Below, piece by piece: positions 4,101 through 53,970 of a stretch of 64,000 nt of DNA. Position 1 is the stretch's first letter, and each line of letters starts with the position of its first letter. Source of the stretch: Trissonchulus latispiculum (lineage: Eukaryota; Nematoda; Enoplea; Enoplida; Ironidae); assembly GCA_030248195.1 (NCBI GenBank), contig JASAND010020203.1, positions 34,977-98,976 on the forward strand, written 5' to 3'. The notes below the pieces were generated by a model. That model had not been told where the DNA came from and did no database searches. It saw nothing but the letters and a program-made list of their open reading frames with translations. Both the position numbers and the translations under genes were made by a program.

Positions 4101-4106
4101 GCAAGC

Positions 4107-4134
4107 TTCTAGAAGGTTCTAGAACTTTCTAGAA
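4107..4134. promoter_or_regulatory. Six-unit heat-shock-element-like array
   Basis: TTC and GAA triplets alternate with an exact 5-bp period: TTC 4107, GAA 4112, TTC 4117, GAA 4122, TTC 4127, GAA 4132. This is the consensus for trimeric HSF binding, doubled. The array is also part of a near-perfect palindrome running from AAGCTTCTAG to CTAGAAGCTT (4103-4138). A CACGTG E-box lies just upstream. No TATA box or gene start is evident downstream. Confidence 0.6.
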
Positions 4135-4138
4135 GCTT

Positions 4139-6887: not shown

Positions 6888-6911
6888 TTTCCTGCACGGT
6901 AGTGCAGGAAA
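6888..6911. repeat. Perfect 10-bp-arm hairpin
   Basis: TTTCCTGCAC (6888-6897), a 4-nt loop GGTA, and GTGCAGGAAA (6902-6911). Isolated, with no associated gene. Confidence 0.8.
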
Positions 6912-11581: not shown

Positions 11582-11616
<35 letters not shown>

Positions 11617-14600
11617 GTCAAAAGGCATCAAGTGGTTCCCGCCCGTCATTTTTCCGTTTATAGAATGAGTTTATAATATTCGGGGCCCCAAAACTCATTT
11701 GTCTTATATTTTGACGCGTTAGCCCTATTACAACTTTTTATCTACGTAAAGAGAGCTTTCGAATCATACCCATTTTTAGGCAGTTTCCGTTACTTTCAGT
11801 TTTGACCCATTTTGACCGGATTTGGCCATTTTTGATCCCTTTCAGGCTCCGTAACTCATTTCTCCTACATTTTGGCGCTTTACCCCGATTACAACTTTTT
11901 ACCTACGCAACGAGAGCTTTCGAATGATACCCATATTGGGAAGTTTCCGACAACTTTTAATTTTGTCCCATTTTAACCGTTTTTGGCCATTTTTGACCTC
12001 TTTGAGGCCCCGTAGCTCATTTCTCCTACATTTTGGCGCTTTACCCCTATTATAACTTTTAACCTACGCAACGAGAGCTTTCGAATGATACCCATATTGG
12101 GAAGTTTCCGACAACTTTTAATTTTGACCCATTTTAACCGTTTTTGGCCATTTTTGACCCCTTTGAGGCCCCGTAACTCATTTTTCCTACATTTTGACGC
12201 CTTGGCCCTATTAAAACTTTTCATCCACGCAACGAGAGCTTTCGAATGATATCCATATTGGGAGGTTTCCGTCACTTTCAATTTTGACCATTTGCAGCAT
12301 CACCGTATCGAGTAATTACGAATTGTGTGACACTACGGTGCCGAGGTGCACGGAGGGTCTTCCCGCATCGGGTGCCACTCTACATGCAAAATTTCAGGCC
12401 AACTAGTTGACTCTAGCTCGAGGTAAAGGCGGAAAACCCCTTCAAACGGCCGTTTTGGCCGTTTTTGGCCATTTTTGACACTTTTTCGCCTCATAACTCA
12501 AAATAGGTACATTTTCAGGCCTTGACCCTATTACAACTTTTTCATGGCTCGACGAGAGCTTTCGAATGATACCAAAATTAGCTCATTTGGACAACTTTTT
12601 TATTTTACTCATTTTTACTCACGGGGGTGCTCCGGGAGCACCTCTGCTCCCCCGGGGCTCCCCGCGCTTCCGGGAGCAGTTCAAGTCAAGACCTTCAAAA
12701 TGAGGTATCAACCACCTCTCTACCCCTTCCCAATCTCGAGATAGACAGGGGGGACACGAAAATGTGAACAATAATAATAAGAACTAGCGCTACTGCAAGA
12801 ATGTGTTGCCCACAACAGGTTTTTCTGTTTATTTTTCTGCCATAACTTTCGATAGACGCATGTTCACAAAATGTCGCAAGAAGGAAACTTGCTCAGCTCG
12901 ACGAACTCTTTCGTTTGAGCACCATATCGACCACTTTCAGAGAAATTTTTCAAAATCCGGAATTTTCCGGAACGAATATCTCGAAATCCGTAAATTTTCG
13001 GGAAATTTCGGTTTTTGTTTCGAAATCAGCGTTGTCGAATTGCCCTATGACCAACTTTTGAGTGAAATCGGAGACAAAAAATTTGGACCCAAAATCCGGA
13101 TTTTCGTGAATTCCCGGATTTTCAGTTTTTCGGACATAACTTTCGCTAGACGCATTTTCGGAAAATGTCGCAAGAAGGAAAGTTGCTCAGCTCGACGAGA
13201 TCTTTAATTTGAGTACCATATCGACCACTTTTGGAGAAATTTTTCAAAATCGGGAATTTTCCGGGTGGAATATCTCGAAATCCGGAAATTTTCCGGAAAT
13301 TTCGATTTCAGTTTCGAAATCAGCGTGGTCGAGTTTCCCTATTACCAACTTTTGAGCGAAATCGGAGACAAAAAATTTTTGACCAAATTTAGGATTTTGA
13401 AATTTCGCCTTGGTCCCCCCTTACCAACCGAAAAATTCCGGGATTCGCCATTCCCGGAATCCGGAAGGTATCGGATCCATCTTGCTTCCCGGAGATGTCC
13501 TAGTCAAGGGCTTCAAAATAAGGTATCAACCACCCCTGTACCCCTTCCCAATCTCGAGATCTAGGGGGGGGACAGACGGATAATAATAATAATAATAATA
13601 AGTCAAAAGGCATCAAGTGGTTCCCGCCCGACATTTTTCCGTTTATATACAAAATGGTTTCATTTTTAGGAAAAGTATTGAGATTAGCACATTGCGTCTA
13701 TTACAACTTTTTATCTACTCAACGAGTGCTTTCGAATGACACCGGTATCAACCGGATCCGACAATTTTCAATTTTGACCCATTTTGACCGGTTTTGGCCA
13801 TTTTAGACCCCTTTGTGGCTCCGTAACTCATTTTTCCCACACTTTGGTGCGTTGGCCCTATTGCAACTTTTTATCCACGTAACGAGAGCTTTCGAGTGAT
13901 ACCCATATCAACCCAATTGAACAAATTTCAGTTTTGACCCATTTTGACCGTTTTGGCCATTTTGGGCCATTTTGCGGCCCCGTAACTCATTTCTCCTACA
14001 TTTTGACGCCTTGGCCCTATTACAACTTTTTATCCACGCAACGAGAGCTTTCGAATGATATCCACATTGTGGGGTTTCTGACGACTTTTATTTTTTGCCG
14101 ATTTTGACCGGTTTTGTCCATTTTTGACCCCTTTGAGGCTCCGTAACTCATTTTCCCTACATTTTGACGCCTTGGCCCTATTACAACTTTTTATCCACGC
14201 AACAAGAGCTTTCGAATGATACCCATATTGGGGGGGTTTCCGTCACTTTCAATTTTAACAATTTGCAGCATCACCGTATCGAGTACTTGCATATTGCGCA
14301 GCACTATTGAACGCAGGTGTCCCAAGGGTCTTCCCGCATCGGGTGTCACCCTACATGCAAAATTTCAGGCCAACTAGTTGACTCTAGCTCGAGATAAAGG
14401 CGGAAAACCCCTTCAAACGGCCGTTTTGGCCGTTTTTGGCCATTTTTGACCCTTTTTCGCCTCATAACTAAAAATGGGTGCATTTTCAGGCCTTTACCCA
14501 ATTACAACTTTTTCATTACTCGCCGAGAGCTTTCGAATGATACCAAAATTAGCTCATTTGGACAACTTTTTTATTTTACTCATTTTTACTCACGGGGGTG

Positions 14601-17600
14601 CTCCGGGAGCACCTCTGCTCCCCCGGGGCTCCCCGCGCTTCCGGGAGCAGTTCAAGTCAAGACCTTCAAAATGAGGTATCAACCACCTCTCTACCCCTTC
14701 CCAATCTCGAGATAGACAGGGGGGACACGAAAATGTGAACAATAATAATAAGAAGAAGAATAAGAAAAATAAACATGTCCAGAACATAGGGTTCCAAACC
14801 CTTTGGAAAAGGGCGGGAACCCAATAACTAGCGCTACTGCAAGAATGTGTTGCCCACAACTGGTTTTTCTGTTTATTTTTCTGCCATAACTTTCACCAGA
14901 AGCATTTCCGGAAAATACGGTAATGATGAAAATTACTCAGCACGACGAGCGCTTTCATTTGAGTACCATATCGACCACTTTCGGAAAAATTTTTCAAAAT
15001 CCGGAATTTTCCGGATCGAATATCTCGAAATCCGGAAATTTTCCGGAAATTTCGATTTCAGTTTCGAAATCAGCGCGGTCGAGTTACCCTATGACCAACT
15101 TTTGAGCGAAATCAGAGACAAAAAATTTTTTGGTCCAAAATCCGGGTTTCCGTGAATTCCCGGATTTTCAGTTTTTCGGCCATAACTTTCGCTACACGCA
15201 TTTCCGGAAAATGTCGCAAGAAGGAAAGTTGTTCAGCTCGACGAGCTCTTTCATTTGAGTACCATATCAACCACTTTTGAAGAAATGTTTCAAAATCCGA
15301 AATTTTCCGGGTCTAATATCTCGAAATCCGTAAAGTTTCCGGAAATTTCGATTTCAGTTTCGAAATCAGCGTGGTCGAGTTACCCTATGACCAACTTTTG
15401 AGCGAAATCGGAGACAAAAAATTTTTGACCAAATTTTGGATTTTGAAATTTCGCCTTGGTCCCCCCTTACCAACCGAAAAATTCCGGGATTCACCATTCC
15501 CGGAATCCGGAAGGTATCGGAGCCATCCTGCTTCTCGGAGATGTCCTAGTCAAGGGCTTCAAAATGAGGTATCAACCAAACCTGTACCCCTTCCCAATCT
15601 CGAGATCTAGGGGGGGGACAGACGGATAATAATAATAATAATAATCACTAGCGCTACTGCAAGAATGTGTTGCCCACAACACGTTCCTTTGTGGTATAGA
15701 TTTTGCTAGATACCTGTTAAGCTGTTTCTGTTCAGGAAATCTGTCCCAGGACTCAAAGAACTTTCAATTAAGCACCATATTGCCCATGTTTCAACGAGTT
15801 TTTGAAAATCCGGTTTTTCCGGAAATTCCGGATTTTCCAATCTGCGGCCATAACTTTCGCTAGAAGCATTTCCGGAAAATACGGCAATGATGAAAATTAC
15901 TCAGCTCGACGAGCTCTTTCATTTGAGTACCATATCGACCACTTTTGGAGAAATTTTTCAAAATCCGGAATTTTCCGGGTCGAATATCTCGAAATCCGGA
16001 AATTTTCCGGAAATTTCGATTTCAGTTTCGAAATCAGCGTGGTCGAGTTACCCTATGACCAACTTTTGAGCGAAATCGGAGACAAAAAATTTTTGACCAA
16101 ATTTTGGATTTTGAAATTTCGCCTTGGTCCCCCCTTACCAACCGAAAAATTCCGGGATTCGCCATTCCCGGAATCCGGAAGGTATCAGAGCCATCTTGCT
16201 TCCCGGAGATGTCCTAGTCAAGGGCTTCAAAATGAGGTATCAACCACCCCTGTACCCCTTCCCAATCTCGAGATCTAGGGGGGGGACAGACGGATAATAA
16301 TAATAACTAGCGAAGTAGCGAGAATGGGTTGCCGCGGCAGTTTCCCTTAGGTTCCGGGTTTTCTTCCAGAAGAATGCAACAGTTTTTTGGTCGTAACTTT
16401 CGTTAGACGCATTTCCGGAAAATGCCGCAAGCAGAAAAGTTGTTCAACTCGACGAGCTCTTTCATTTGAGTATCATATCGACCACTTTCGGAAAACCTTT
16501 TCAAAATCCGGGTTTTCCGGAATTCCCGGATTTTCAGTTTTTCGGCTGTAACTTTCGCTAGACGCATTTCCGGAAAATGCCGCAAGCAGAAAAGTTGTTC
16601 AGCTCGACGAGCTCTTTCATTTGAGTATCATATCGACCACTTTCGGGAAAAATTTTCAAAATCCGGGTTTTCGGGAATTCCCGGATTTTCAGTTTTTCGG
16701 CTGTAACTTTCGCTAGACGCATTTCCGGAAAATGCCGCAAGAAGGAAAGTTGTTCAGCTCGACGAGCTCTTTCATTTGAGCCCCATATCGACCACTTTCG
16801 GAAAAAATTTTCAAAATCCGGAATTTTCCGGGTCCAATATCTCGAAATCCGTAAATTTTCCGGAAATTTCGATTTCAGTTTCGAAATCAGCGTGGTCGAC
16901 TTACCCTATGACCAACTTTTAAGCAAAATCGGAGACAAAAAATTTTTACGTTTCCCTTGGTCCCCCCTTACCATTCTAAAAAATTCCGGGATTCGCCATT
17001 CCCGGAATCCGGGAAATATCGAACTGCCCGCGCTTCAGTCAACACTTCACCCCACCCCCTAACCCCCCTGAAAATTTCAGCCCAATCGGGCCACCCTAGC
17101 AAAAGTTAGAGGGGGGGGACAGGGGGTGGTAACGAGAATAAATAATAACTAGCGAAGTTGCGAGAATGGGTTGCCGCGGCATTTTCCCTTTGGGGGGACG
17201 GATTTTCAGAAGAATGCAACAGTATGTTGGTCGTATTTTTCGCTACACGCATTTCCCGAAAATGCCGCAAGCAGAAAAGTTGTTCAGCTCGACGAGCTCT
17301 TTCATTTGCGTACCATATTGACCACATTTGAAGAAATTTTTTAAAATCCGGGTTTTCGTGAATTCCCGGATTTTCAGTTTTTCGGCTGTAACTTTCGCTA
17401 GACGCATTTCCGGAAAATGCCGCAAGCAGAAATGTTGTTCAGCTCGACGAGCTCTTTCATTTGAGTACCATATTGACCACTTTTGAAGAACTTTTTTAAA
17501 ATCCGGGTTTTCGGGAATTCCCGGATTTTCAGTTTTTCGGCCATAACTTTCGCTAGGCGCATTTCCGGAAAATGTCGCAAGAAGGAAAGTTGTTCAGCTC

Positions 17601-20584
17601 GACGAGCTCTTTCATTTGAGTACCATATCGACCACTTTCGGAAAAATTTTTCAAAATCCGGAATTTTCCGGGTCCAATATCTCGAAATCCGTAAATTTTC
17701 CGGAAATTTCGATTTCAGTTTCGAAATCAGCGCTATCGAATTACCCTATGACCAACTTTTAAGCAAAATCGGAGACAAAAAATTTTTACGTTTCCCTTGG
17801 TCCCCCCTTACCATTCTAAGAAATTCCGGGATTCGCCATTCCCGGAATCCGGGAAATATCGGACTGCCCGCGCTTCAGTCAACACTTCACCCCACCCCAA
17901 ACCTCCACTGAAAATTTCAGCCCAATCGGGCCACCCTAGCAAAAGTTAGAGGGGGGGGACAGGGGGTGGTCACGAGAATAATAATAATAAAGGGACATAC
18001 CCAGATGAAAGGGTTGCCTTTTTTGTGGAAAAAGCGGCAACCCAATAATAATAAACGGACATACCCAGATGAAAGGGTTGCCTTTTTTGTGTAAAAAGCG
18101 GCAACCCAATAACTAGCGAAGTAGCGAGAATGGGTTGCCGCGGCATTTTCCGTTTATATATGGTTATATCTCCGAAAAGAGGCACCTTTGAGACCCAGTA
18201 TTGTCTGATTCGTGTAGCCCGTATCGAGAGCTCTCATTAGAGTACCATATTGACCATATTTAGAGTTGTTTCGATTTTTGGTCATTTCGGTCGATTTTGC
18301 CCATTTTTGACTACTTTGAAGCTCCGTAACTCATTTTTCCTATATTTTGGTGTGTTGGCACTATTACAACTTTTCATCTACTCAACGAGAGCTTTCGAAT
18401 GACACCGACATGAGCCCGATCCTAGAACTTTCAATTTTGAGCCATTTTGGCCGTTTTTGGCCATTTTTGATTATTTTTCGCCTCATAACTCAAAATGAGT
18501 GCATTTTCAGGCCTTGACCCAATTACAACTTTTTCATTACTCACCGAGAGCTTTCGAATGACACCGACATGAGCCCGATCCTAGAACTTTCAATTTTGAG
18601 CCATTTTGGCCGTTTTTGGCCATTTTTGACCATTTTCGGCCTCATAACTCAAAATGGGTGCATTTTCAGGCCTTGACCCTATTACAACTTTTTCATTACT
18701 CACCGAGAGCTTTCGAATGATACCAAAATTAGCTCATTTGGACAACTTTTTTATTTTACTCATTTTTACTCACGGGGGTGCTCCGGGAGCACCTCTGCTC
18801 CCCCGGGGCTCCCCGCGCTTCCGGGAGCAGTTCAAGTCAAGACCTTTAAAATGAGGTATCAACCACATCTCTACCCCTTTCCAATCTCGAGATAGAGGGG
18901 GGGGACAGGGTGTGGTAACGAGATGAATAATAAATAAACGGACATACCCAGATGAAAGGGTTGCCTTTTTGTGTAAAAAGCGGCAACCCAATAATAATAA
19001 TAATAAGCACAGACCAATAACAAAGTGTTGCCCATTCCTTTGGAAAAGTGGGCAACACAATAATAATAAGCACAGACCAATAACAAAGTGTTGCCCATCC
19101 CTTTGGAAAAGTGGGCAACACAACTAGCGCTACTGCAAGAATGTGTTGCCCACAAATGGTTTTTCTGTTTATTTTTCTGCCATAACTTTCACCAGAAGCA
19201 TTTCCGGAAAATACGGTAATGATGAAAATTACTCAGCACGACGAGCGCTTTCATTTGAGTACCATATCGACCACTTTCGGAAAAATTTTTCAAAATCCGG
19301 AATTTTCCGGATCGAATATCTCGAAATCCGGAAATTTTCCGGAAATTTCGATTTCAGTTTCGAAATCAGCGCGGTCGAGTTACCCTATGACCAACTTTTG
19401 AGCGAAATCGGAGACAAAAAATTTTTTGGTCCAAAATCCGGGTTTCCGTGAATTCCCGGATTTTCAGTTTTTCGGCCATAACTTTCGCTAGACGCATTTC
19501 CGGAAAATGTCGCAAGAAGGAAAGTTGTTCAGCTCGACGAGCTCTTTCATTTGAGTACCATATCAACCACTTTTGAAGAAATTTTTCAAAATCCGGAATT
19601 TTCCCGGTCTAATATCTCGAAATCCGTAAATTTTCCGGCAATTTCGATTTCAGTTTCGAAATCAGCGTGGTCGAGTTACCCTATGACCAACTTTTGAGCG
19701 AAATCGGAGACAAAAAATTTTTGACCAAATTTTGGATTTTGAAATTTCGCCTTGGTCCCCCCTTACCAACCGAAAAATTCCGGGATTCACCATTCCCGGA
19801 ATCCGGAAGATATCGGAGCCATCTTGCTTCCCGGAGATGTCCTAGTTAAGGGCTTCAAAATGAGGTATCAACCACCCCTGTACCCCTTCCCAATATCGAG
19901 ATCTAGGGGGGGGACAGACGGATAATAATAATAACTAGCGAAGTAGCGAGAATGGGTTGCCGCGGCATTTTCCGTTTATAGATGGCCATATCTCCCAAAA
20001 GAGGCACCGTTGTGACCCAGTATAGTCTGATTCGTATAGTCCGTATCGAGAGCTCTCAATAGAGTACCATATTGACCATATTTAGAGTTGTTTAAATTTT
20101 TGGTCATTTTGGTCGATTTTGACCATTTTTGACCCATTTGCGGCTCTGTAACTCAATTTTCGTACACTTTGGCGTTTTGGCCCTATTACAACTTTTTATA
20201 TACTCAATGAGAGCTTTCGAATGACACCGATATGAGCCCGATCCGAGAACTTTCAATTTTGAGCCATTTTGGCCGTTTTTGGGCATTTTTTGACCATTTT
20301 TCGCCTCATAACTCAAAATGAGTGCATTTTCAGGCCTTGACCCAATTACAACTTTTTCATTACTCGCCGAGAGCTTTCGAATGATACCAAAATTAGCTCA
20401 TTTGGACAACTTTTTTATTTTACTCATTTTTACTCACGGGGCTGCTCCGGGAGCAACCTTGCTCCCCCGGGGCTCCCCGCGCTTCAGTCAACACTTCAAG
20501 TCAAGACCTTCAAAATGAGGTATCAACCACCTCTCTACCCCTTCCCAAACTCAAGATAGAGGGGGGGACAGGGGTGGTCACGAG

Positions 20585-20616
<32 letters not shown>

Positions 20617-22505
20617 CGGACATACCCAGATGAAAGGGTTGCCTTTTTGTGTAAAAAGCGGCAACCCAATAATAATCATAATAATAATAAGCACAGACCA
20701 ATAACAAAGTGTTGCCCATTCCTTTAGGAAAAGTGGGCAACACAACTAGCGCTACTGCAAGAATGTGTTGCCCACAACAGGTTTTTCTGTTTATTTTTCT
20801 GCCATAACTTTCACTAGACGCATTTTCAGAAAATGTCGCAAAAAGGAAAGTTGCTCAGCTCGACGAACTCTTTCATTTGAGTACTATATCGACCACTTTT
20901 GGAGAAATTTTTCAAAATCCGTTATTTTCCGGGGCGAATATCTCGAAATCCGTAAATTTTCGGGAAATTTCGATTTCAGTTTCGAAATCAGCGTGGTCGA
21001 ATTACCCTAGGACCAACTTTTGAATGAAATCGGAGACAAAAAATTTTTTGGTCCAAAATCCGGATTTTCGTGAATTCCCGGATTTTCAGTTTTCCGACAT
21101 AACTTTCGCTAGACGCATTTTCGGAAAATGTAGCAAGAAGGAAAGTTGCTCAGCTCGACGAGATCTTTCATTTGAGTACCATATCGACCACTTTCGGAGA
21201 AATTTTTCAAAATCCGGAATTTTCCGGGTCCAATATCTCGAAATCCGGAAATTTTCCGGAAATTTCGATTTCAGTTTCGAAATCACCGTGGTCGAGTTAC
21301 CCTATGACCAACTTTTGAGCGAAATCGGAGACAAAAAATTTTTGACCAAATTTTGGATTTTGAAATTTCGCCTTGGTCCCCCCTTACCATCCGAAAAATT
21401 CCGGGATTCGCCATTCCCGGAATCCGGAAGGTATCGGAGCCATCTCGCTTCCGGGAGATGTCCTAGTCAAGGGCTTCAAAATAAGGTATCAACCAGCCCT
21501 GTACCCCTTCCCAATCTCGAGATCTAGGGGGGGGACAGACGGATAATAATAATAATAACTAGCGCTACTGCAAGAATGTGTTGCCCACAACACCTTCCTT
21601 TGGGGTATAGATGATTTTGCTAGATACTTTTTAAGTTATTTCTGTTCAGGAAATCTGTCCCAGGACTCAAAGAGCTTTCAATTAAGCACCATATTGCCCA
21701 TGTTTCAACGAATTATTGAAAATCCGGTTTTTTTCCGGAAATTCCGGATTTTCTAATCTGCGGCCATAACTTTCGCTAGAAACATTTCCGGAAAGTATGG
21801 TAATGATAAAAATTACTCAGCTCGACGAGCTCTTTCATTTGAGTACCATATCGACCACTTTTGGAGAAATTTTTCAAAATCCGGAATTTTCCGGGTCGAA
21901 TATCTCGAAATCCGGAAATTTTCCGGAAATTTCGGTTTCAGTTTCGAAATCAGCGTGGTCGAATTACCCTATGACCAACTTTTGAGTGAAATCGGAGACA
22001 AAAAATTTTTTGGTCCAAAATCCGGGTTTTCGTGAATTCCCGGATTTTCAGTTTTTCGGCCGTAACTTTCGCTACACGCATTTCCGGAAAATGTCGCAAG
22101 AAGGAAAGTTGCTCAGCTCGACGAGCTCTTTCATTTGAGTACCATATCGACCACTTTTGGAGAAATTTTTCAAAATCCGGAATTTTCCGGGTCGAATATC
22201 TCGAAATCCGTAAATTTTCCGGAAATTTCGATTTCAGTTTCGAAATCAGCGTGGTCGAGTTACCCTATGACCAACTTTTGAGCGAAATCGGACACAAAAA
22301 ATTTTTGACCAAATTTTGGATTTTGAAATTTCGCCTTGGTCCCCCCTTACCATTCGAAAAATTCCGGGATTCGCCATTCCCGGAATCCGGAAGGTATCGG
22401 ACTGCCCAACTGAGGATCCAACGTCCAAGTGAATATCTTCAAAATGAGGTATCAACCATCCCTGTACCCCTTCCCAATCTCGAGATCTAGGGGGGGGACA
22501 GACGG

Positions 22506-22537
<32 letters not shown>

Positions 22538-28500: not shown

Positions 28501-31500
28501 CTCACTTTTGAGATCTCCAACAGTGTAACTTTTGGCCATATCTCGAGATTTTCAAAAGGTAGAAAAATTTCGATTTCAGATTTGGAATCTGCGTCCCCGA
28601 ATTACCCTATAACCGACTTTTCAACCAAATCAGAGCCAAAAAGTTTTTGATCATTTTTGACACCTTCGCCTGAACATGGTTGCCCATAAAAGGGCAGTTG
28701 GGATAAGCATTTTTCAACTACATATTGCTAAAAGTTTCCTGATACATCCTTCTAAACCGTGTTCTGGCAAACCCACCGGCTAAACTTGACTAACGAGTTC
28801 AAAAAAGCACAGATATTAGGTGTTTCTGGGCAGTTTGCTCACTTTTGCGGTCTCCAACAGTGTAACTTTTGGCCATATCTCGAGATTCACAAAAGGTAGA
28901 AAAATTTCAATTGCAGATTTGGAATCTGCGTCCCCGAATTACCCTATAACCGACTTTTCAACCAAATCGGAGGCAAAAAGTTTTTGACCATTTTTTACAC
29001 CTTTGCCTGAACATGGTTGCCCATAAAAGGGCAGTTGGGATAAGCAATTCTCAACTACATACTACAAGTTACTTGATATACCATTCTAAACGTGTCCTAG
29101 CAAATACACCGGCTCATCTTGACTAAGACAAAAAGGTTTAGACCGTCTGGCACTGTGACGACAGTCTGCTCACTTTTGCGGTCTCCAACAAAAATTTTTA
29201 AAAATTAAATTCCCTCCCCTGGTCGACTGGGTGGGAGTAGAACGATGAAATTCTAAGCGTGTCCTAGCAAATACACCGGCTCATCTTGATTAACGAGTTA
29301 AAAAAACACAGATGTTACGGGTTTCTGGGCAGTTTGCTCACTTTTGCGGTCTCCAACAGTGTAACGTTCGGCCATCCCCCCTCATGATTTTGAAAAATTA
29401 AATTCCCTGCCCTGGTCGACTGGGTGGGAGTAGAATAATGAAATTCACACATGCACACCTTCTTTTCATGCTCTTCAAAATGAGGTATGAACCAACCCTG
29501 TATCACTTCCCAATCTCGAGATCTAGGGGGGGGACACCCACCTGCTAATAATAATAATAATAATAAGAATAATAATAAACAGACAATAGTAATGGTTGCC
29601 CTTTTTCCTTTGGAAAGGTGGGCAACACAATAACTAGCGACTGCGAGAGTGTGTTGCCCACCTGCATATTCCATTTGGGTCAGAGCTTTATTTCCTAAGA
29701 CTTTGATAGCGTCTCGTTCAAGAAATGGGTTCTTCTGTTATACGATTGGTTTTATTCGATTACAATAATGACGACACCTTCATCCTAAATTGGTTGCCCT
29801 TAAAAGGGCAGTTGGGATAAGTGATTTTTCAAGTATACCCTGAATATATACTACTTCATACAAATGGTTGCCCTTAAGAAGGCAGTTGGGATAAGTGATA
29901 TTTCGACTAAATTTTGATTGTAGATTTATATTCTGCGTTCCCGGGTTATCCTAGAACCAACTTTTCAACCAAATCAGAGATAAAGCGTTTTTACCATTTT
30001 TGACACCTTTATCTTGACATGGTTGCCCATAAAAGGGCAGTTGGGATAAGGAATTTTCGACTGAATATGGCTAAAACTTACTTGATACACCCTTCTAAAC
30101 CATGTTCTAGCAAATCCACCGGCTAAACTTGACTAACGAGTTCAAAAAACACAGATATTAGGTGTTTCTGAGTTGTTTGCTCACTTTTGCGGTCTCAAAC
30201 AGTGTAACTTTTATCGATATCTCGTGATCCAAAAGGGTTAGAAAAATTTCGTTTGCAGATTTGGAATCTGCGTCCCCGAATTACCCTATAACCGACTTTT
30301 CAACCAAATCGGAGACAAAAAGTTTTTGACCATTTTTGACATCTTTGCCTGAACATGGTTGCCCATAAAAGGGCAGTTGGGTCTTGGGATAAGCAATTTT
30401 CAACTACATATCACTAAAAGTTACTTAATATACCATTCTAAGCGTGTCCTAGCAAATACACCGGCTCATCTTGACTAAGACAAAAAGGTTTAGACCGTCT
30501 GGCACTGTGACGACAGTCTGCTCACTTTCGCCTTCCCAGAGAACCAGAACCACCACCTTCGATTTTTAAAAATTTAAATTTTAAATTCCCTGCCCTGGTC
30601 GACTGGGTGGAGATAGAGCGATGAAATTCACGGATGCACACCTTCTTTTCACGCTCTTCAAAATGAGGTATTAACCAACCCGGTACCCCTTCCCAATCTC
30701 GAGTTCTAGGGGGGGGACACCCACCTGCTAATAATAATAATAAGAATAACTAGCGCTACTGCAAGAATGTGTTGCCCACGATAGGTTTTTCTGTTTATTT
30801 TTTCCTACTCGTTGAGGGCTTTCAGATGAGTACCATATCGACTACTTTTGAGACAATTTTTTTAAAATTCCGTTTTCCGGGATTTCCCGGATTTTCGGTT
30901 TTTCGGCTATAACTTTCGCTAGACGCATTTTGGGAAAATGCTGCAAGCAGGACAGTTGTTCAGCTCGACGAGCTCTTTCATTTGAGTACCCTATCGACCA
31001 CTTTCGGAAAATTTTTTCAAAATTCGGAAATTTCCGGATCGAATATCTCGAAATCCGTAAATTTTCCGGAAATTTCGATTTCAGTTTCGAAATCAGTGTG
31101 GTCGACTTACCCTATGACAACCTTTTAAGCAAAATCGGAGACAAAAAATTTTTTGGTCCAAAATCCGGGTTTTCGTGAATTCCCGGATTTTCAGTTTTTC
31201 GGCTATAACTTTCGCTAGACACATTTCCGGAAAATGTCGCAAGAAGGAAAGTTGTTCAGCTCGGCGAGCTCTTTCATTTGAGTACCATATCGACCACTTT
31301 TGGAGAAATTTTTCAAAATCCGGAATTTTCCGGGTCGAATATCTCGAAATCCGGAAATTTTCCGGAAATTTCGATTTCAGTTTCGAAATCAGCATGGTCG
31401 AATTACCCTATGACCAACTTTTAAGCAAAATCGGAGACAAAAAATTTTTACGTTTCCCTTGGTCCCCCCTTACGATTTTTAAAATTCCGGGATTCGCCAT

Positions 31501-32297
31501 TCCCGGAATCCGGGAGATATCGGGATGCCCTTACAAACGGGAGCACTTCAGGTCACCCTACACCTATGGTGAGAATTTCAGCCCGATCGGTCCAGCCAAT
31601 CTCGAGAAAAAGGGGGGGGACACAAATGTTGACCGGAATAATAAATAAACTAGCGCTACTGCAAGAATGTGTTGCCCACAACAGATTCCCTTGGGGTATA
31701 AATTTTGCTAGACACCTTTTAAGCTGCTTCTGTTCAGGAAATCTGTCCCAGGACTCAAAAAGCTTTCAATTAAGCACCATATTGCCCATGTATCAACGAA
31801 TGTTTGAAAATCCGGTTTTTTACGGAAATTCCGCATTTTCCAATCTGTGGCCATAACTTTCGCTAGAAACATTTCCGGAAAATATGGTAATTATAAAAAT
31901 TACTCAGCTCGCCGAGATCTTTCATTTGAGTACCATATCGACCACTTTTGGAGAAATTTTTCAAACTCCGGAATTTTCCGGGTCGAATATCTCGAAATCC
32001 GGAAATTTTCCGGAAATTTCGATTTCAGTTTCGAAATCAGCGTGGTCGAGTTACCCTATGACCAACTTTTGAGCGAAATCGGAGACAAAAAATTTTAGAC
32101 CAAATTTTGGATTTTGAAATTTCGCCTTGGTCCCCCCTTACCATTCGAAAAATTCCGGGATTCGCCATTCCCGGAATTCGGAAGGTATCGGACTGCCCAA
32201 CTGAGGATCCAATGTCCTAGTCAAGGGCTTCAAAATGAGGTATCAACCACCCCTGTACCCCTTCCCAATCTCGAGATCTAGGGGGGGGGACAGACGG

Positions 32298-32334
<37 letters not shown>

Positions 32335-35300
32335 GCACAGACCAATAACAAAGTGTTGCCCATTCCTTTGGAAAAGTGGGCAACACAATAAATAAATAAA
32401 TAAATAAATAAAGAAACTTAGCCATAACAAAGGGTTGTCTTTTTTTAAAAAAAATGCGACAACCCAATAATAAGAATAATAATAATAAACAGACAGTAGA
32501 AAGGGTTGCCCTCTTCCTTTGGAAAGGTGGGCAACACAATAATAAACAGACAATAGTAATGGTTGCCCTCTTCCTTTGGAAAGGTGGGCAACACAATAAT
32601 AATAATAAACAGACAGTAGAAAGGGTTGCCCTCTTCCTTTGGAAAGGTGGGCAACACAATAAGTCAAAAGGCATCAAGTGGTTCCCGCCCGACATTTTTC
32701 CGTTTATAGAATGAGTTTATGTATATACTTTCTGGAAAAATGCAGTTACTAGTTTTCGTCTATTATAACTGGTTCCCACTCCCAGCTCACCAAAAGCTTT
32801 CGATTTATACCACTATCAGACCAATCCGACAAAGTTCGATTTTGACCGTTTCTGGCCATTTTTGACCCCTTTGGAACCACGTAACTCATTTTTCCTACAT
32901 TTTGACGCTTTGGCCCTATTACAACTTTTTATCCACGCAACGAGAGCTTTCGAATGACACCGGTATCAGCCGTATCCGACAATTTTCAATTTAGGCCATT
33001 TTGACCGTTTCTGGCCATTTTTGACCCCTTTGGAGCCCCGTAACTCATTTTTCCTACATTTTGACGCTTTACCCCTATTACAACTTTTTACCTACGCAAC
33101 GAGAGCTTTCGAATGATACCCATATTGGGGGATTTCCGTCACTTTCAATTTTGACCATTTGCAGCATCACCGTATCGAGTAATTGCTAATTGCCTGACAC
33201 TATGGAACCCAGGTGCCCGGAGGGTCTTCCCCCATCGGGTGCCACCCTACATGCCAAATTTCAGGCCAACTAGTTGACTCTAGCTCGTGATAAAGGCGGA
33301 AAACCCCTTCAAACGGCCGTTTTGGCCGTTTTTGGCCATTTTTGACCCTTTTTCGCCTCATAACTCAAAATAGGTACATTTTCAGGCCTTGACCCTATTA
33401 CAACTTTTTCATGGCTCGACGAGAGCTTTCGAATGATGCCAAAATTAGCTCATTTGGACAACTTTTTTATTTTACTCATTTTTACTCACGGGGGTGCTCC
33501 GGGAGCACCTCTGCTCCCCCGGGGCTCCCCGCGCTTCCGGGAGCAGTTCAAGTCAAGACCTTCAAAATGAGGTATCAACCACCTCTCTACCCCTTCCCAA
33601 TCTCGAGATAGACAGGGGGGACACGAAAATGTGAACAATAAGAAGAAAAATAAACATGCCCAGAACATAGGGTTCCAAACCCTTTGGAAAAGGGCGGGAA
33701 CCCAATAAATCCTACCGGCATCAACGGGTTGTCGCAGCTATTTTCCTCTTATCTAAAGGGCCAAAACTCAGTTGTGGTACATTTTCAGAACTTGGTTCTA
33801 TTGCAACCTTCTTCCTACTCGTTGAGGGCTTTCAAATGAGTACCATATCGACTACTTTTGAGACAATTTTTAAAAATTCCGATTTTCCGGGAGTTCCCGG
33901 ATTTTCGGTTTTTCGGACGGAACTTTCGCTAGGCGTATTTTCTAAAAATGTCGCAAGAAGCAAAGTTGCTAAGCTCGACGAGCTCTTTCATTTGAGCCCC
34001 ATATTGACCACTTTTGGGGAAATTTTTCAAAATCCGGAATATTCCGGGCCGAATATCTCGAAATCCGTAAATTTTCCGGAAAATTAGATTACAGTTTTGA
34101 AATCAGCGTGGTCGAGTTACCCTATGACTAACTTTTAAGCAAAATCGGAGACAACAAATTTTTAGTCCAAAATCCGGGTTTTCGTGAATTCCCGGATTTT
34201 CAGTTTTTCGGCTATAACTTTCGCTAGACGCATTTCCGGAAAATGTCGCAAGAAGGAAAGGTGTTCAGCTCGACGCGCTCTTTCATTTGAGTACCATATC
34301 GACTACTTTTGAAGAAATTTTTCAAAATCCGAAATTTTCCGGGGCGTATATCTCAAAATCCGTAAATTTTCCGGAAATTTCGATTTCAGTTTCAAAATCA
34401 GCATGGTCGAATTACCCTATGACCAACTTTTGAGCGAAATCGGAGACAAAAAATTTTTACGTTTCCCTTGGTCCCCCCTTACCATTTTTAAAAATTCCGG
34501 GAGCCGCCATTCCCGGAATCCGGGAGGTATCGGGCTACCCGCACTTCCGGTACCACTTCACCCCACCCCCAACTGGTACTGATAATTTCAGCCCGATCGG
34601 TCCAGCCAATCTCGAGAAAAAGGGGGGGGACAAGATTGTTTACCGATATAATAAATAAATAAATAAATAAATAAATAAAGAAACTTTCCCATAACAAAGG
34701 GTTGTCTTTTTTTTTAAAAAAATGCGACAACCCAATAATAAACGGACATACCCAGATGAAAGGGTTGCCTTTTTTGTGTAAAAAGCAGCAACCCAACAAG
34801 CTAAACTGGCATGAATGGTTTGCCGCCGCTTCTTTCTTTAGGCAGCTAAGTTCGTAGCGTCGATTCTCGGGAAATGGTTGCCTCTGAAAAGGTAGTTGGG
34901 ATAAGGAACTTTTCTAGAAATGGTTGCCCTTGAAAGGGCAGTTGGGATAAGAGATTTTCACTAAATATTGCTAAAAGTTACTTGATACACCCTCTTAAAG
35001 GGAGTCCTAGCAAATCCACCAGCTCAGCTTGACTACCGGCTTCGAAAAAAGTACTGATATTAGGCTTTTCTAAACAATTTGCTCACTTTTGCGGACTCCA
35101 ACAGCGTAGCATTTGGCCATATCTCGAGATCCACGGGAGCTAGAAACATTTAGACTGCTGATTTGGAATCTGCGTCCCCGAATTACCCTATGACCGACTT
35201 TTCAACCAAATCGGACATTACACGTTTTTATCCATTTTTGACACCTTCACCTGAAAATGGTTGCCCATAAAAGGGCAGTTGGGATAAGAAATTTTCTACT

Positions 35301-38300
35301 AAATATCGCCACAAGTTACTTGACACTTCTTTTTAAAGGGTGTCCTAGCAAATCCACCGGCTAAACTTGACTAACGAGTTCAAAAAACACAGATATTAGG
35401 CGTTTCTGGGCAGTTTGCTCACTTTTGCGGTCTCCAACAGTGTAAGTTTTGGCCATATCTCGAGATTCACAAAAGCTAGAAAAATTTCGATTGCAGATTT
35501 GGAATCTGCGTCCCCGAATTACCCTAGGACTGACTTTTTAACCAAATCGGAGAGAAAAAGTTTTCGACCATTTTTGAGAATCGCCTTGCCAGAGAACCAG
35601 AACCCCCCTCTAAACCAGAACCATTTTAAAAAATTAAATTCCCTGCCCTGGTCGACTGGGTGGGTCTAGAGCGATGAAATTAAAATGGGCCAGGTTTGGG
35701 ACCAACCCCCACATACCCACCAAATTTCAGCTCCGGGCGTTGAGCCTAGCTTGAGTTAATAGGGGGGGACAAGAAGAATAATAATAATAATAATAAGTCA
35801 AAAGGCATCAAGTGGTTCCCGCCCGACATTTTTCTGCTTATAGACTGAGTTTATAATATTCGGGGCCCCATAACTCATTTGTCCTATATTTTGACGCGTT
35901 AGCCCTATTACAACTTTTTATCTACGCAACGAGAGCTTTCGAATGACACCCATATTGTTGGGTTTCGATTACTTTCAATTTTGACCCATTTTGACCGGTT
36001 TTGGCCTTTTTGACCCTTTTGAGGCCCCGTAACTCATTTTTCCGACATTCTGCTGCTTTGGCCCCATTACATCTTTTTATCTACGCAACGAGAGCTTTCG
36101 AATGACACCAGTATTAATCGGATCCGACAATTTTCAATTTTGACCCATTTTGACCGGTATTAACCATTTTTGACCCTTTTGGGGCCCCGTAACTCATTTG
36201 TCCTACATTTTGGAGCTTCGGTCCTATTACAACTTTTTATCTACTCAACGAGAGCTTTCGAATGACTTCGGTATCGATCGGATCCGACAATTTTCAATTT
36301 TGACCCATTTTGACCTATTTCTGGCCATTTTTGACCCCTTTGAGGCCCCGTAACTCATTTTTCCTACACTTTGACGCGTTGGCCCTATTACAACTTTTTA
36401 TCCACGCAACGAGAGCTTTCGAATGATATCCATATTGGGGGGTTTTCGTCACTTTCAATTTTGACCATTTGCAGCATCACCGTATCGAGTAATTGCGAAT
36501 TGTGTGACACTATGGTGCCCAGGTGCCCGGAGGGTCGTCCCGCATCGGGTGCCACCCTACATGCCAAATTTCAGGCCAACTAGTTGACTCTAGCTCGAGA
36601 TAAAGGCGGAAAACCCCTTCAAACGGCCGTTTTGGCCGTTTTTGGCCATTTTTGACCATTTTCGGCCTCATAACTCAAAATGGGTGCATTTTCAGGCCTT
36701 GACCCTATTACAACTTTTTTATTACTCGCCGAGAGCTTTCGAATGATACCAAAATTAGCTCATTTGGACAACTTTTTTATTTTACTCATTTTTACTCACG
36801 GGGGTGCTCCGGGAGCACCTCTGCTCCCCCGGGGCTCCCCGCGCTTCCGGGAGCAGTTCAAGTCAAGACCTTCAAAATGAGGTATCAACCACCTCTCTAC
36901 CCCTTCCCAATCTCGAGATAGACAGGGGGGACACGAAAATGTGAACAATAATAATAAGAAGAAGAAAAATAAACATGTCCAGAACATAGGGTTCCAAACC
37001 CTTTGGAAAAGGGCGGGAACCCAATAACTAGCGCTACTGCAAGAATGTGTTGCCCACAACACATTCCTTTGGGGTATAGATTTTGCTAGATACTTTTTAA
37101 GTTATTTCTGTTCAGGAAATCTGTCCCAGGACTCAAAGAGCTTTCAATTAAGTACCATATTGCCCATGTTTCAACGAATTTTTGAAAATCCGGTTTTTTC
37201 CGGAAATTCCGGATTTTCCAATCTGCGGCCATAACTTTCGCTAGAAACATATCGGGAAAATATGGTAATGATAAAAATTACCCAGCTCGCCGAGCTCTTT
37301 CATTTGAGTATCATATCGACCACTTTTGGAGAAATTTTTCAAAATCCGGAATTTTCCGGATCAAATATCTCGAAATCCGTAAATTTTCCGGGAATTTCGA
37401 TTTCAGTTTCGAAATCAGCATGGTCGAATTACCCTATGACCGACTTTTGAGCCAAATCGGAGACAAAAAATTTTTGACCAAATTTTGGATTTTTGAAATT
37501 TCGCCTTGGTCCCCCCTTACCATCCGAAAAAATCCGAATTTTCAAAACCCGGAATTTCGGAACCATCTTGCTTCCGGGAGATGTCCTAGTCAAGGGCTTC
37601 AAAATAAGGTATCAACCACTCCTGTACCCCTTTCCAATCTCGAGATCTAGGGGGGGGGACAGACGGATAATAATAAGCACAGAACGATAACAAAGTGTTG
37701 CCCATTCCTTTGGAAAAGTGGGCAACACAATAATAATAAACAGACAGTAGAAAGGGTTGCCCTTTTTTCCTTTGGAAAGGTGGGCAACACAATAATAAGC
37801 ACAGACCAATAACAAAGTGTTGCCCATTCCTTTGGAAAAGTGGGCAACACAATAAGCACAGACCAATAACAAGGTGTTGCCATTTCCTTTGGAAAAGTGG
37901 GCAACACAATAAATCCTACCGGCATCAACGGGTTGTCGCAGCCATTTTCCTCTTATCTAAAGGGTCAAAACTCAGTATTGGTACATTTTCAAAACTTGGA
38001 TCAATTACAAATTTTTTCCTACTCGTTGAGGGCTTTCAGATGAGTACCATATCGACTACTTTTGAGACAATTTTTTAAAATCCGGGTTTTCGTGAATTCC
38101 CGGATTTTCAGTTTTTCGGCTATAACTTTCGCTAGACGCATTTCCGGAAAATGTCACAAGAAGGAAAGTTGTTCAGCTCGACGAGCTCTTTCATTTGAGC
38201 CCCATATCGACCACTTTCGGAGAAATTTTTCAAAATCCGGAATTTTCCGGGTCGAATATCTCGAAATCCGGAAATTTTCCGGAAATTTCGATTTCAGTTT

Positions 38301-38557
38301 CGAAATCAGCGTGGTCGACTTACCCTATGACCAACTTTTAAGCAAAATCGGAGACAAAAAATTTTTACGTTTCCCTTGGTCCCCCCTTACGATTTTTAAA
38401 ATTCCGGGATTCGCCATTCCCGGAATCCGGGAGATATCGGGATGCCCTTACAAACGGGAGCACTTCAGGTCACCCTACAACTATGGTGAGAATTTCAGCC
38501 CGATCGGTCCAGCCAATCTCGAGAAAAAGGGGGGGACACAAATGTTGACCGGAATAA

Positions 38558-38588
<31 letters not shown>

Positions 38589-41500
38589 AGAAACTTAGCC
38601 ATAACAAAGGGTTGTCTTTTTTTTAAAAAAATGCGACAACCCAATAAGAATAAACATGTCCAGAACATAGGGTTCCAAACCCTTTGGAAAAGGGCGGGAA
38701 CCCAACAACAACAACAACGTCTCCGGGTTTGAATCTCGCCATGCAGTATGCACCCATTTGTGAGTGCAACCTTTTCATTCTTACATAGTTATATAAATAG
38801 ACAGAGTAATAATTACGTCAATGGATAATTGTGGTAAGCAGGGGAAACTGACCAAGTCCAGGGAAGGACTCAAGGCACTCATGAGACGACGTCGATTGCA
38901 GTTGAGAAGGAGAGTGGCGTGGTGGTAGCCCTGCCGCTGAGTGCGTCGCTCCGCGCTCCCGGAGATGTGGAGCCAGCAGGATCCCAGGCCACGGTTAAGG
39001 GAAATTGTAAATTGCCAGAACCTCGTTAAGGAATATAGAAATCAACCAAACCTTAAGTAATCATCAAAGGATAAAACTTCAAACCCGATCTCAGACGTGA
39101 AAGGGCGGCGGAGGGGAAAGGGTAGAAGTTAAGTCCTATTCTCATTCTGCGTCCTATACTTTAACTGTCTGTGATTTTACTTTGTTCCAGTGTGCTTTTT
39201 GCCATAAAACGTATATAATTATATAATTATGTTTAATGGAGGAGGACCTTGTTCGTAGCTCAGCTCAATCTAAACAACTTTGTCGTAGCATCGCAAAGCA
39301 CGGCACCTTGAATAAATTTGAATATCATGTGAAAAACCATCTGCCAGAGAAAATATAATAGCTGACAGGGCATTCTTTAGTGGGGGGGGGGGAGGGAGCG
39401 TGCACTAATGCCCACTAACTATAGGGTGCCCAAAAATGCCAAATTTTAAGAATTTTTGGTCAAAATCTTCAAAAATTGTCGCGCTCCGCCGGAATGTTTT
39501 TGGTCTGAAATCTGAAATTTTTGAGCAGTTTTAAGCATATTATAGCCAGGCGCGTAGCCGTGGGGGGAATTCCCCCTGAAATTGTGGACCCCCCAGGAAT
39601 TTTTCCCAGCCATGTGTAAAACACCCGTTTTTCAAAAAAATTTCCATCATAATACGTGTTTCTTAGCCCAAAATGAGTACCGAAACCGAACACCTTATCT
39701 GGTGTATATATATACTTTGACCAGCTTTACATCACTTGAGTGCATCAACACGTGCAAGGTACGTATACGTATATATTTATAATTTCAAAGAATGCTATGT
39801 TTTCAATTCCACAAAGGCTCACAAAATAGCAAAATTTCTCAGAATTTTTGCATTCCCCCAGAAAAACTTTTGCATCCCCCGAAGCGTTTTTGCATTCCAC
39901 CCGAAACGTTTTTCTGACTACACTAGTGGTTATAGCAGTATATATATACTATTTTGTATGTACAACACAGTAAATTTTTACAGCATTTTTGGCAATTTTA
40001 CACCACTTTGAATCCTACCGCTTTTGGACTTCTTCCCCCCTTTCGCTTAGCGAAAACCCAGGCTGAAAAAATGAATGCCTGTTCTATCCATGCAGACAGT
40101 CTGGGGTAGGGTAAACAATTAATGGTAAGTGAGTTATATAGCGCGGCGAGAAATAAAAACCCTAATTTTCGAATTTTGGCTGTAACTATTTTATTAAGTG
40201 GCAAATCGAAAATCTAAGGATAACTACCATGAGGCCTTGCGAAGAGCTTCAAAATGAGCCATAAAACATCTCTCTAGCACTTACGGTTGGTGCGGAAATT
40301 TTAGGCGAAACCGATGGGAAAAAAACCCAGCCGAAATTTTTGCTGGACGTAAGCCAGAACATTTTTGACTATACCATTCGAAAGAGCGGGCCATTTTTAG
40401 TATATTTGCATCAAAAAATATCAACATTTTTGCAAAAATTTATGTCAAATTGACTTTTGAAAATTTTGTATGTTTAACACGTAAAACATAGGCAAATTTT
40501 GGAAATTTTTGAATTTGCTTAATTTAATTCTACAGTTTTAACATCACGTAGAAAACGTGTTTTTATTGCATTTAAAGCCAAACCCAAACTATTTCAGTGA
40601 AAAATTGGCGATTTTTGACGAAATTGAAAATTTTGGATTGAAATGGCACCATGTCAGATTTTGGCCACCTGGACAACACATAGAGGGTTTCTATACCAAA
40701 TTAATCAGGAGCCCGAGCCTCTATTGAGCTAACAAATGCAAGAATTTTTCCTTTGCTGCTAATGGTTAGAAAAAATTTTCATTTTGAAATTTGGGTTTCT
40801 GCCCGCACATGGGTTTTTCCCGCGCATGGGTTTTTTCCCGCCCCAGTCTAGGTCACCCCCAGGTCGCACCACAGGCACTAGAGCCAAATTGCATAGTTCA
40901 GGGTGACCCCCCCCAAAGTTGACCCTGTCTGACCCCCAAGTTGGAACCAAAATTTCCAAAATTTTCAAAGTCCGAAAAAAGTTGCTGAGAGGCAGCGGGA
41001 GGTACAATAATACAGCCTCTAGGGTAGTTTTGGACGCTCTTTAAGAAATTAAATCCGATCTAGCTCATATGGATGACTCACACTGGCGTTGGGTTTTCCC
41101 CGCATCTGGGACTGGGTTTTTTCCCGCCGCGTTATACGTACGTATACAAGCAGAAAGAAAAAGGATATCTTCTTTGTGCCGAGAACAATATCTGACCGTT
41201 CCCCGACATGAGAAACAATGCCAAAGCGATCCCTGATCAGGTCAACCATCCAGTCCAGATTCTCCCGACGACTCAGTCGACTCGCGCTCCGAAAGAAGGT
41301 GACGTTGATGTTGTCCGAATCATGGTAGACTGCACCTCCGCCGCTCTTTCGACGAGCCTACGACACAAAACCATCGCTAATTCATAAATTTATTACATTA
41401 AATACATTCGTAAATATATACGTATATATACGTACATCTGAGTTACCTGCAACACCATTGCTTTTCTCTTAGCGTTTACGCAGTATATAACCTAATTAAT

Positions 41501-53938: not shown

Positions 53939-53970
53939 CTGTGGTCAGTATTCATATTCAGTCCATATTC

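What the first reader, a model, noticed from the sequence alone, without database searches (positions are those of the whole stretch)
11612..38703. A 27 kb complex of 27 elements obeying strict bracket (last-in-first-out) nesting
Reading left to right, every hairpin end unit closes the most recent unclosed start of its own family. In order: A1 B1 A2[A] B2 B3 C1 C2[C][C] C3[C][B][B] B4 C4[C][B] B5 B6 E1 B7[B] C5 E2 E3 E4[E] E5 D* B9[B][D][E][E][E] A3[A] D1[D][C] F1 A4[A] B10[B][E][B][B] D2[D][A]. Counts match for A (4/4), C (5/5), E (5/5) and D (3/3 counting the chimera at 30749). Only B1 and F1 stay open. Five different labels nesting correctly over 27 kb is hard to explain other than by serial insertion of mobile units into one another. 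The order also gives a relative age for every insertion.
Basis: seen in the sequence. Interest (0 to 1): 0.96.

Follow-up and report, generated by a model that had tools for sequence, protein, structure and literature searches.

The report
Transposons nested inside each other's microsatellites

Summary
27 starts and 25 hairpin ends lie in 11615-38705, all on one strand. Counting the chimera as D, they parse with no crossing or unmatched end; only B1 and F1 stay open. Shuffled labels never do so (0 of 20,000 per mode; 0 of 200,000 without the 12 uninterrupted elements). Terminal complementarity alone agrees with 24 of 25 end labels, though B ends tie with E. Interruptions fall in the A-rich tract each element carries beside its hairpin end. 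In 11 other complexes nesting exceeds shuffles (60 of 106 ends against 41.8), 47 of 47 multi-hit contigs in capped listings are one-stranded, and 15 of 17 near-identical pairs have different flanks. The elements are likely non-autonomous Helitron-type transposons: at 19 of 36 places with the helper-type C terminus a Helitron gene lies 7.1-7.9 kb on, opposite strand. Deeper copies do not look younger genome-wide (49 against 47), and the HINE 3' palindrome was not found. Known element kind; strand-locked self-nesting at a self-carried target appears to be a new variant.

The parts
11615..38703 (-).
   Evidence: flanked left by (AAC)nAAT and right by AACAACAACAACAACG
12782..13599 (-). B1, start and body; no end left to close it under LIFO
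13600..14822 (-). A2, uninterrupted A element
14826..19121 (-). B2 with B3, C1, C2 and C3 inside
   Evidence: body 98.1% identical to B4
15647..19058 (-). B3 with C1, C2, C3 inside
16305..18107 (-). C1 with C2 inside
17147..18043 (-). C2, uninterrupted
   Evidence: 99.5% identical to a C body on contig C4468 in another flank
18111..18989 (-). C3, uninterrupted
   Evidence: 99.7% identical to a copy on C4468 in another flank
19122..20743 (-). B4 with C4 inside; starts directly on the AA of the previous end
   Evidence: 99.6% identical to a copy on C2419 in another flank
19933..20667 (-). C4, uninterrupted
20744..37907 (-). B5, holds B6 and everything inside it
21557..37850 (-). B6, holds E1 and everything inside it
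22535..37790 (-). E1, holds B7, C5, F1, A4, B10
23762..24632 (-). B7, uninterrupted
24642..34794 (-). C5, holds E2-E5, D*, B9, A3, D1; its terminal arm carries one mismatch
25482..32657 (-). E2, holds E3
   Evidence: 99.9% identical to E5
26598..32594 (-). E3, holds E4 and E5
28110..29628 (-). E4, uninterrupted
   Evidence: 99.9% identical to a copy on C1127 in another flank
29632..32537 (-). E5, holds D*
30748..32465 (-). D*, chimera: B-type terminus on a D body and D hairpin end; its AAAT tail is split by B9 and goes on beyond it
31648..32386 (-). B9, uninterrupted, deepest element (tenth level)
32661..33703 (-). A3, uninterrupted
33707..34733 (-). D1, uninterrupted
34798..35794 (-). F1, start and body; no F-type end found here, though such ends occur elsewhere in the genome
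35795..37022 (-). A4, uninterrupted
37026..37728 (-). B10, uninterrupted
37911..38642 (-). D2, uninterrupted
11117..11614 (+). host site, left: open frame running into an (ACC)n(AAC)n tract; resembles a non-LTR retrotransposon C-terminus by eye only, no Pfam match
38704..38720 (+). host site, right: (AAC)n tract after the outermost end

Best explanation
The complex is a stack of 27 short element copies, most likely non-autonomous rolling-circle (Helitron/Helentron-type) transposons, that likely inserted one after another into the A-rich microsatellite each of them carries beside its hairpin end. Shown: every body in the window runs unbroken from its terminus to a G-run and is interrupted only in the AAT/AAAT tract that follows; terminal motifs are complementary between start and end of a family; all units in the window share one strand; single elements occur almost identically in different flanks; Helitron genes sit at a near-constant distance from a C-family terminus. 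LIFO order is then a necessary by-product.
For: LIFO without crossing; 0 of 20,000 shuffles perfect in each mode and 0 of 200,000 in each mode with the 12 uninterrupted elements removed. Complementarity alone agrees with 24 of 25 end labels, 8 of them B ends that tie with E. All 27 bodies end in a G-run plus A-rich tract. Of 185 starts in 12 complexes 181 abut or follow an end unit or lie in an element tail or a microsatellite, 4 are other; starts within 60 bases of a stretch edge were skipped. In 11 other complexes 134 of 180 ends match without crossing, shuffle mean 88.6; without uninterrupted pairs 60 of 106 against 41.8, sd 2.3, maximum 49 of 500 shuffles, crossings 3 against mean 30, minimum 15. 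D-family AAAT tails go on beyond the insert. 15 of 17 pairs at 99% identity or more have different left flanks. 47 of 47 multi-hit contigs in the first 100 places listed by each are one-stranded, 168 hits. Helitron_like_N (PF14214) has 147 matches here, 0 of 14 control genomes. The exact 42-nt C-type start read on C3676 has 36 places in the genome; at 19 of them a Helitron_like_N match lies 7,073-7,940 bases downstream (median 7,521) on the opposite strand, a twentieth contig has one 40 kb away. Hairpin units fold better than shuffles, 5 of 5, z -3.2 to -4.9.
Against: Nearest-relative identity does not follow depth: child nearer in 49, parent nearer in 47, one tie, of 97 nested pairs; correlation 0.04 over 149 elements (window alone 0.42, P 0.048, n 23). 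No hairpin above shuffles in the other terminal module, 0 of 6 families, although published HINEs have one. No helper was read end to end, and helper genes were linked to family C only; at 16 of 36 exact places no match was listed on the contig. In the 11 complexes 46 of 180 ends stayed unmatched; stretch edges, lost starts and unknown families may explain them but were not separated. Two of 17 near-identical pairs share flanks, and runs such as four f ends on C4468 may be tandem copies. Two of 341 units lie on the minority strand.
Confidence: 0.85

Rival explanations
1. The nest grew mainly by segmental or tandem duplication and unequal recombination of a repeat array, as satellite DNA does, and the bracket order is a by-product.
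For: Two of 17 near-identical pairs share their left flank; C4468 holds repeated blocks and runs of f ends; B/D chimeras show recombination between families.
Against: 15 of 17 near-identical pairs sit in different flanks; crossings are 3 against a shuffle mean of 30; split AAAT tracts go on beyond the insert; start and end numbers of A, C, D, E agree in the window.
Confidence: 0.07
2. Runs of end units are tandem duplicates of a roughly 57-64-base hairpin unit (replication slippage at a hairpin), so only uninterrupted elements are real insertions and the deep brackets are an illusion.
For: Tandem Repeats Finder reports end-unit arrays at 17980-18112, 18996-19123, 32475-32662 and 37672-37912; same-family neighbours cannot be assigned individually; in the 11 complexes ends (180) outnumber starts (159).
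Against: With all 12 uninterrupted elements removed the remaining labels still nest perfectly, 0 of 200,000 shuffles; A, C, D and E start and end numbers are equal in the window; runs mix families in the order the open starts demand.
Confidence: 0.05
3. The elements are serially nested but most families belong to another class (for example MITE-like or a new microsatellite-homing type); only family C is tied to a Helitron gene.
For: No 3' palindrome, no TC...CTRR termini in most families, no helper read end to end, helper linked to C only.
Against: Helitron gene at near-constant distance and on the opposite strand from the C terminus in 19 contigs; all families share module order and tail; the order subTIR, inverted repeat, microsatellite, central repeats, subTIR matches HINEs.
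Confidence: 0.08
4. The order is an assembly artefact of a repeat-rich contig.
For: Long-read support could not be inspected.
Against: The same grammar appears in 11 other complexes; misjoins would not create bracket order or split tracts that continue.
Confidence: 0.03

Closest known systems
HINEs, non-autonomous Helentrons (Thomas et al. 2014, PMC4067079, passages and section 6; Cg_HINE in oyster, PMC7492417, passages)
   Same: Subterminal inverted repeats of about 11 nt, an inverted repeat beside one of them, short microsatellite in that module, central tandem repeats, T-rich insertion without visible duplication, Helitron genes in the genome.
   Different: No 3' palindrome above chance; the microsatellite is AAT/AAAT and serves as the landing site of further copies; nests up to ten deep, strand-locked, six families in the window and seven in the genome sample.
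DINE-1 of Drosophila (Yang and Barbash 2008, PMC2374699, passages)
   Same: Same module order; insertion between TT; GTCY-rich microsatellite near one end; species-specific central repeats.
   Different: The passages seen describe no insertion into the element's own microsatellite.
Helitron-like elements of Lepidoptera disrupting (GAAA)n microsatellites (Coates et al. 2010; only the reference title was seen)
   Same: Helitron-like elements landing in microsatellites.
   Different: Whether they nest in their own microsatellites could not be read.
MuTAnT, TA-microsatellite-targeting Mutator-like elements (PMC4486113, search listing only)
   Same: A transposon family homing on microsatellites.
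   Different: A Mutator-like DNA transposon family; no self-nesting seen in the listing.
Complex, shuffled Helitron loci in Crassostrea gigas (reviewed in PMC12628747, passages)
   Same: Helitron/Helentron pieces found inside other elements.
   Different: Described as truncated, tandemised and shuffled, not as a parseable one-strand stack.

Membership tests
HINE / Helentron | Subterminal inverted repeats, at least 11 identical nt within a family | tested here: met
   A, B, D 11 nt, E 13 nt; C only 10 nt; 24 of 25 ends agree with their family, B ends tying with E
HINE / Helentron | Inverted repeat beside the 5' subTIR (hairpin) | tested here: met
   5 of 5 end units fold better than shuffles, z -3.2 to -4.9
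HINE / Helentron | Microsatellite in that module and central tandem repeats | tested here: met
   27 of 27 tails A-rich; body repeats of about 155-161, 295 and 336 nt
HINE / Helentron | Palindrome (stem loop) near the 3' end | tested here: not met
   0 of 6 three-prime modules (31-35 nt) fold better than shuffles, z 0.1 to 0.9; by eye only B has an 8-nt palindrome. For this reason the elements are not filed as HINEs
HINE / Helentron | Insertion at TT or T-rich sites without target duplication | tested here: inconclusive
   AA on + (TT on -) at the window's junctions (junction list); repeats hide any duplication
Helitron superfamily | Rep/helicase gene inside elements that share the 3' terminus | tested here: met
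   family C only: Helitron_like_N 7.1-7.9 kb from the exact C-type start, opposite strand, at 19 of 36 places; the second terminus was not read in the same copy, though three c ends lie about 4.3 kb upstream of the gene on C2130
HINE / Helentron | Endonuclease domain fused to the Rep/helicase (Helentron) | not tested
   the middle and end of the Helitron frame on C3676 were not obtained; a UCH domain lies in a separate frame nearer the C terminus
canonical Helitron | 5' TC and 3' CTRR termini | tested here: not met
   on the minus strand B, C, E carry CTAG before the final TT but A, D, F do not, and none of the five hairpin units begins with TC (sequences); motif recalled, from no call
non-LTR retrotransposon or SINE | Coding frame or 3' tail with target duplications | not tested
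   one B-body frame found no homologous protein; duplications cannot be seen in microsatellites

The most novel reading that the evidence does not exclude
Seven element families in one genome share a self-renewing landing pad: each copy brings its own strand-specific A-rich tract, so insertion multiplies targets, confines new copies to earlier copies, fixes their orientation and leaves every body intact, and the genome carries many machine-readable, bracket-ordered insertion records.
Probability: 0.6. Interest if true: 0.8.

Novelty: new variant of a known kind. Interest (0 to 1): 0.72.

Why it matters
Nested transposons are common, but a stack that parses as strict brackets, ten deep, in one orientation and always at the same internal site is unusual; in a Calliphora survey 11 of 322 repeats were nested (PMC3630058, passage), against 26 of 27 elements in this complex (a chosen locus, not a survey). 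It gives a relative insertion order readable from sequence alone and a testable idea: elements that carry their own target can grow without hitting genes or each other's working parts. It also offers a natural assay for the target and strand choice of rolling-circle integration. No report of such strand-locked self-nesting turned up in the listings, which cover open-licence papers only.

Tried and rejected
Rfam: no match in the window at the gathering threshold. Pfam on 8 window frames: reverse transcriptase, endonuclease and RNase H families of retroelements, plus one Cytochrome-c551 match below its cut-off in a body frame. Protein search with a retroelement frame: nearest relatives (51% identity) are unnamed; with one B-body frame nothing scored. 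One exact pattern each in the viral and the prokaryote collection: none. A retrotransposon or SINE origin was thought unlikely because pairing is by terminal complementarity and hairpin; it was not tested further. The first regex scan timed out; one search was redone. Genome-wide counts of A and C ends were not obtained, nor a search with the UCH frame (not completed).

The 1,780-aa open frame begins near base 158 of C3676 and cannot reach the UCH frame at 7403-8341, so they are separate frames or exons; bases 2201-7400 were not read. That weakened the link between C terminus and gene on this contig, so I searched the exact C-type start and compared places. On that result I moved the main confidence from 0.83 to 0.85 and the rival about another class from 0.12 to 0.08.

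Literature searches. Seen in passages: PMC4067079 (also section 6), PMC7492417, PMC2374699, PMC3630058, PMC4344730, PMC12628747. All other papers were seen in search listings or as reference titles only.
Full report
OBSERVATION. An edit-distance scan of both strands of the 64 kb window finds 27 start motifs and 25 hairpin end units, all on the + strand between 11615 and 38705. A clustering fault in that call printed wrong families for four ends; the labels used were set by hand there, and the unattended scan gives the same 52 units in the same order, with none on the minus strand. Counting the chimera at 30748 as D by its body and tail, a last-in-first-out parse gives 0 crossings and 0 unmatched ends and leaves B1 and F1 open. 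Counted as B by its start motif, 24 of 25 ends still match without crossing against a maximum of 18 in 200 shuffles, but simple LIFO then shows 5 crossings and 1 unmatched end. Shuffling end labels, start labels or both gives 0 perfect parses of 20,000 each (mean crossings 32-34, minimum 6-9). After removing the 12 uninterrupted start-end pairs, which nest trivially, 0 of 200,000 shuffles in each mode are perfect; with B and E merged 22 of 200,000 are, for end labels and for both.

LABELS ARE NOT CIRCULAR. Each start holds a 10-13 nt motif whose reverse complement is the last arm of the hairpin of the same family: A 11, B 11, C 10, D 11, E 13 nt. By complementarity alone 24 of 25 ends agree with their family; the exception, the C5 end, has one mismatch. 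The 8 B ends tie between B and E at 11 nt and were scored as B; the 5 E ends prefer E at 13 nt. F1 has no end here, but F-type ends with a matching arm occur in other complexes, as the motif predicts.

WHERE THE INSERTS LIE. All 27 bodies run unbroken to a G-run followed by an A-rich tract, and every interruption falls in that tract. The outermost element lies in an (AAC)n tract. Across the window and 11 other complexes, of 185 starts (those within 60 bases of a stretch edge skipped) 63 abut an end unit, 57 lie in an AAT-type tail after a G-run, 36 in another A-rich element tail, 18 follow an end unit, 7 lie in a microsatellite without a recognised tail and 4 are other.

GENOME. The window lies in an unnamed 734 Mb assembly of 21,732 contigs. 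With up to 3 mismatches the b-end pattern occurs 1,183 times, the B start 1,358 times and the A start 710 times, controls 0; these are lower bounds. I fetched 20 stretches forming 11 complexes, chosen because several b ends were listed there. A seventh family, G, and F ends were added from them. On the main strand there are 339 units, 159 starts and 180 ends, with 2 units on the other strand; 134 of 180 ends match without crossing against a shuffle mean of 88.6. Without the 74 uninterrupted pairs, 60 of 106 match against 41.8 (sd 2.3, maximum 49 of 500); LIFO crossings are 3 against a mean of 30, minimum 15. 46 of 180 ends stay unmatched; starts beyond the stretch edges and unknown families may explain them. 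In the first 100 places listed by each, 47 of 47 contigs with more than one hit carry all hits on one strand, 168 hits.

SPLIT TAILS. D elements have an AAAT tail. In 22 uninterrupted D elements tail plus leader averages 44 nt. Of 19 interrupted ones, one (C2419:13486) is a parse artefact at a B/D hybrid and was dropped, and one slice was re-cut by eye; in the other 18 the AAAT tract stops at the insert and goes on beyond it, before the D end, the halves adding up to about 48 nt (this mean was worked out by hand). The window's D* split by B9 is one of them.

MOBILITY. Of 17 body pairs at 99% identity or more, 15 have different left flanks, among them window B1, B4, C2, C3, C5, E3 and E4 against copies on other contigs; E2 and E5 differ at one of 1,077 positions though E5 sits two levels inside E2. 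Two pairs share their flank and are likely block duplicates.

CLASS AND POLARITY. The genome holds 147 listed matches to Helitron_like_N (PF14214), 0 of 14 control genomes. On C3676 a b end abuts a C start two edits from the consensus. The exact 42-nt form of that start has 36 places in the genome; at 19 a Helitron_like_N match lies 7,073-7,940 bases downstream (median 7,521) on the opposite strand; one more contig has a match 40 kb away and the contigs of the other 16 places have none listed. On C3676 the gene's first 680 aa carry DUF6570, and a separate frame nearer the C terminus carries a UCH domain. On C2130 three C-type starts are listed left of the gene and three c ends lie right of it. 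So family C has a Helitron-coding helper; that it serves the other families is inferred. Read in the gene's direction the modules follow HINEs (subTIR, inverted repeat, microsatellite; central repeats; subTIR), but the 3' palindrome was tested and not found (0 of 6), so I do not file them as HINEs.

AGAINST. Nearest-relative identity did not follow depth: 49 against 47 of 97 pairs, one tie; correlation 0.04 over 149 elements; window only 0.42, P 0.048, n 23. The bracket order therefore stands on structure, not on divergence.

VERDICT. Observation confirmed; serial insertion well supported; mechanism most likely rolling-circle insertion into a self-carried, strand-specific A-rich tract. The element kind is known; the strand-locked self-nesting is a new variant as far as the listings show.

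Noticed in passing
47871-49079 (+), 51968-53944 (-), 62047-62853 (-): Frames with reverse transcriptase, endonuclease and RNase H domains: retroelements beside the complex.
   Followed up: partly
30748-31647; also contig C2419: B-type terminus joined to a D body with a D end; another B/D hybrid with a different breakpoint exists on C2419, so terminus swapping seems to recur.
   Followed up: partly
L009 (C108) position 707: A B start that departs from the consensus after about 17 nt and runs into an F-like tail, probably an internally deleted or recombined element abutting a b end.
   Followed up: no
L022-L024 (C4468): Repeated blocks and a run of four f ends, likely block or tandem duplication inside a nest.
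   Followed up: no
L059 (C3676) 3-938: A ubiquitin-hydrolase (UCH) frame between the Helitron gene and the C terminus; a passage of PMC4067079 mentions OTU-like proteases in related elements.
   Followed up: partly
right flanks of complexes: Of 7 right flanks with no further unit within 130 bases (window included, one inner case left out), 5 begin with AAAAA, which suggests founding insertions in A-runs rather than microsatellites.
   Followed up: no
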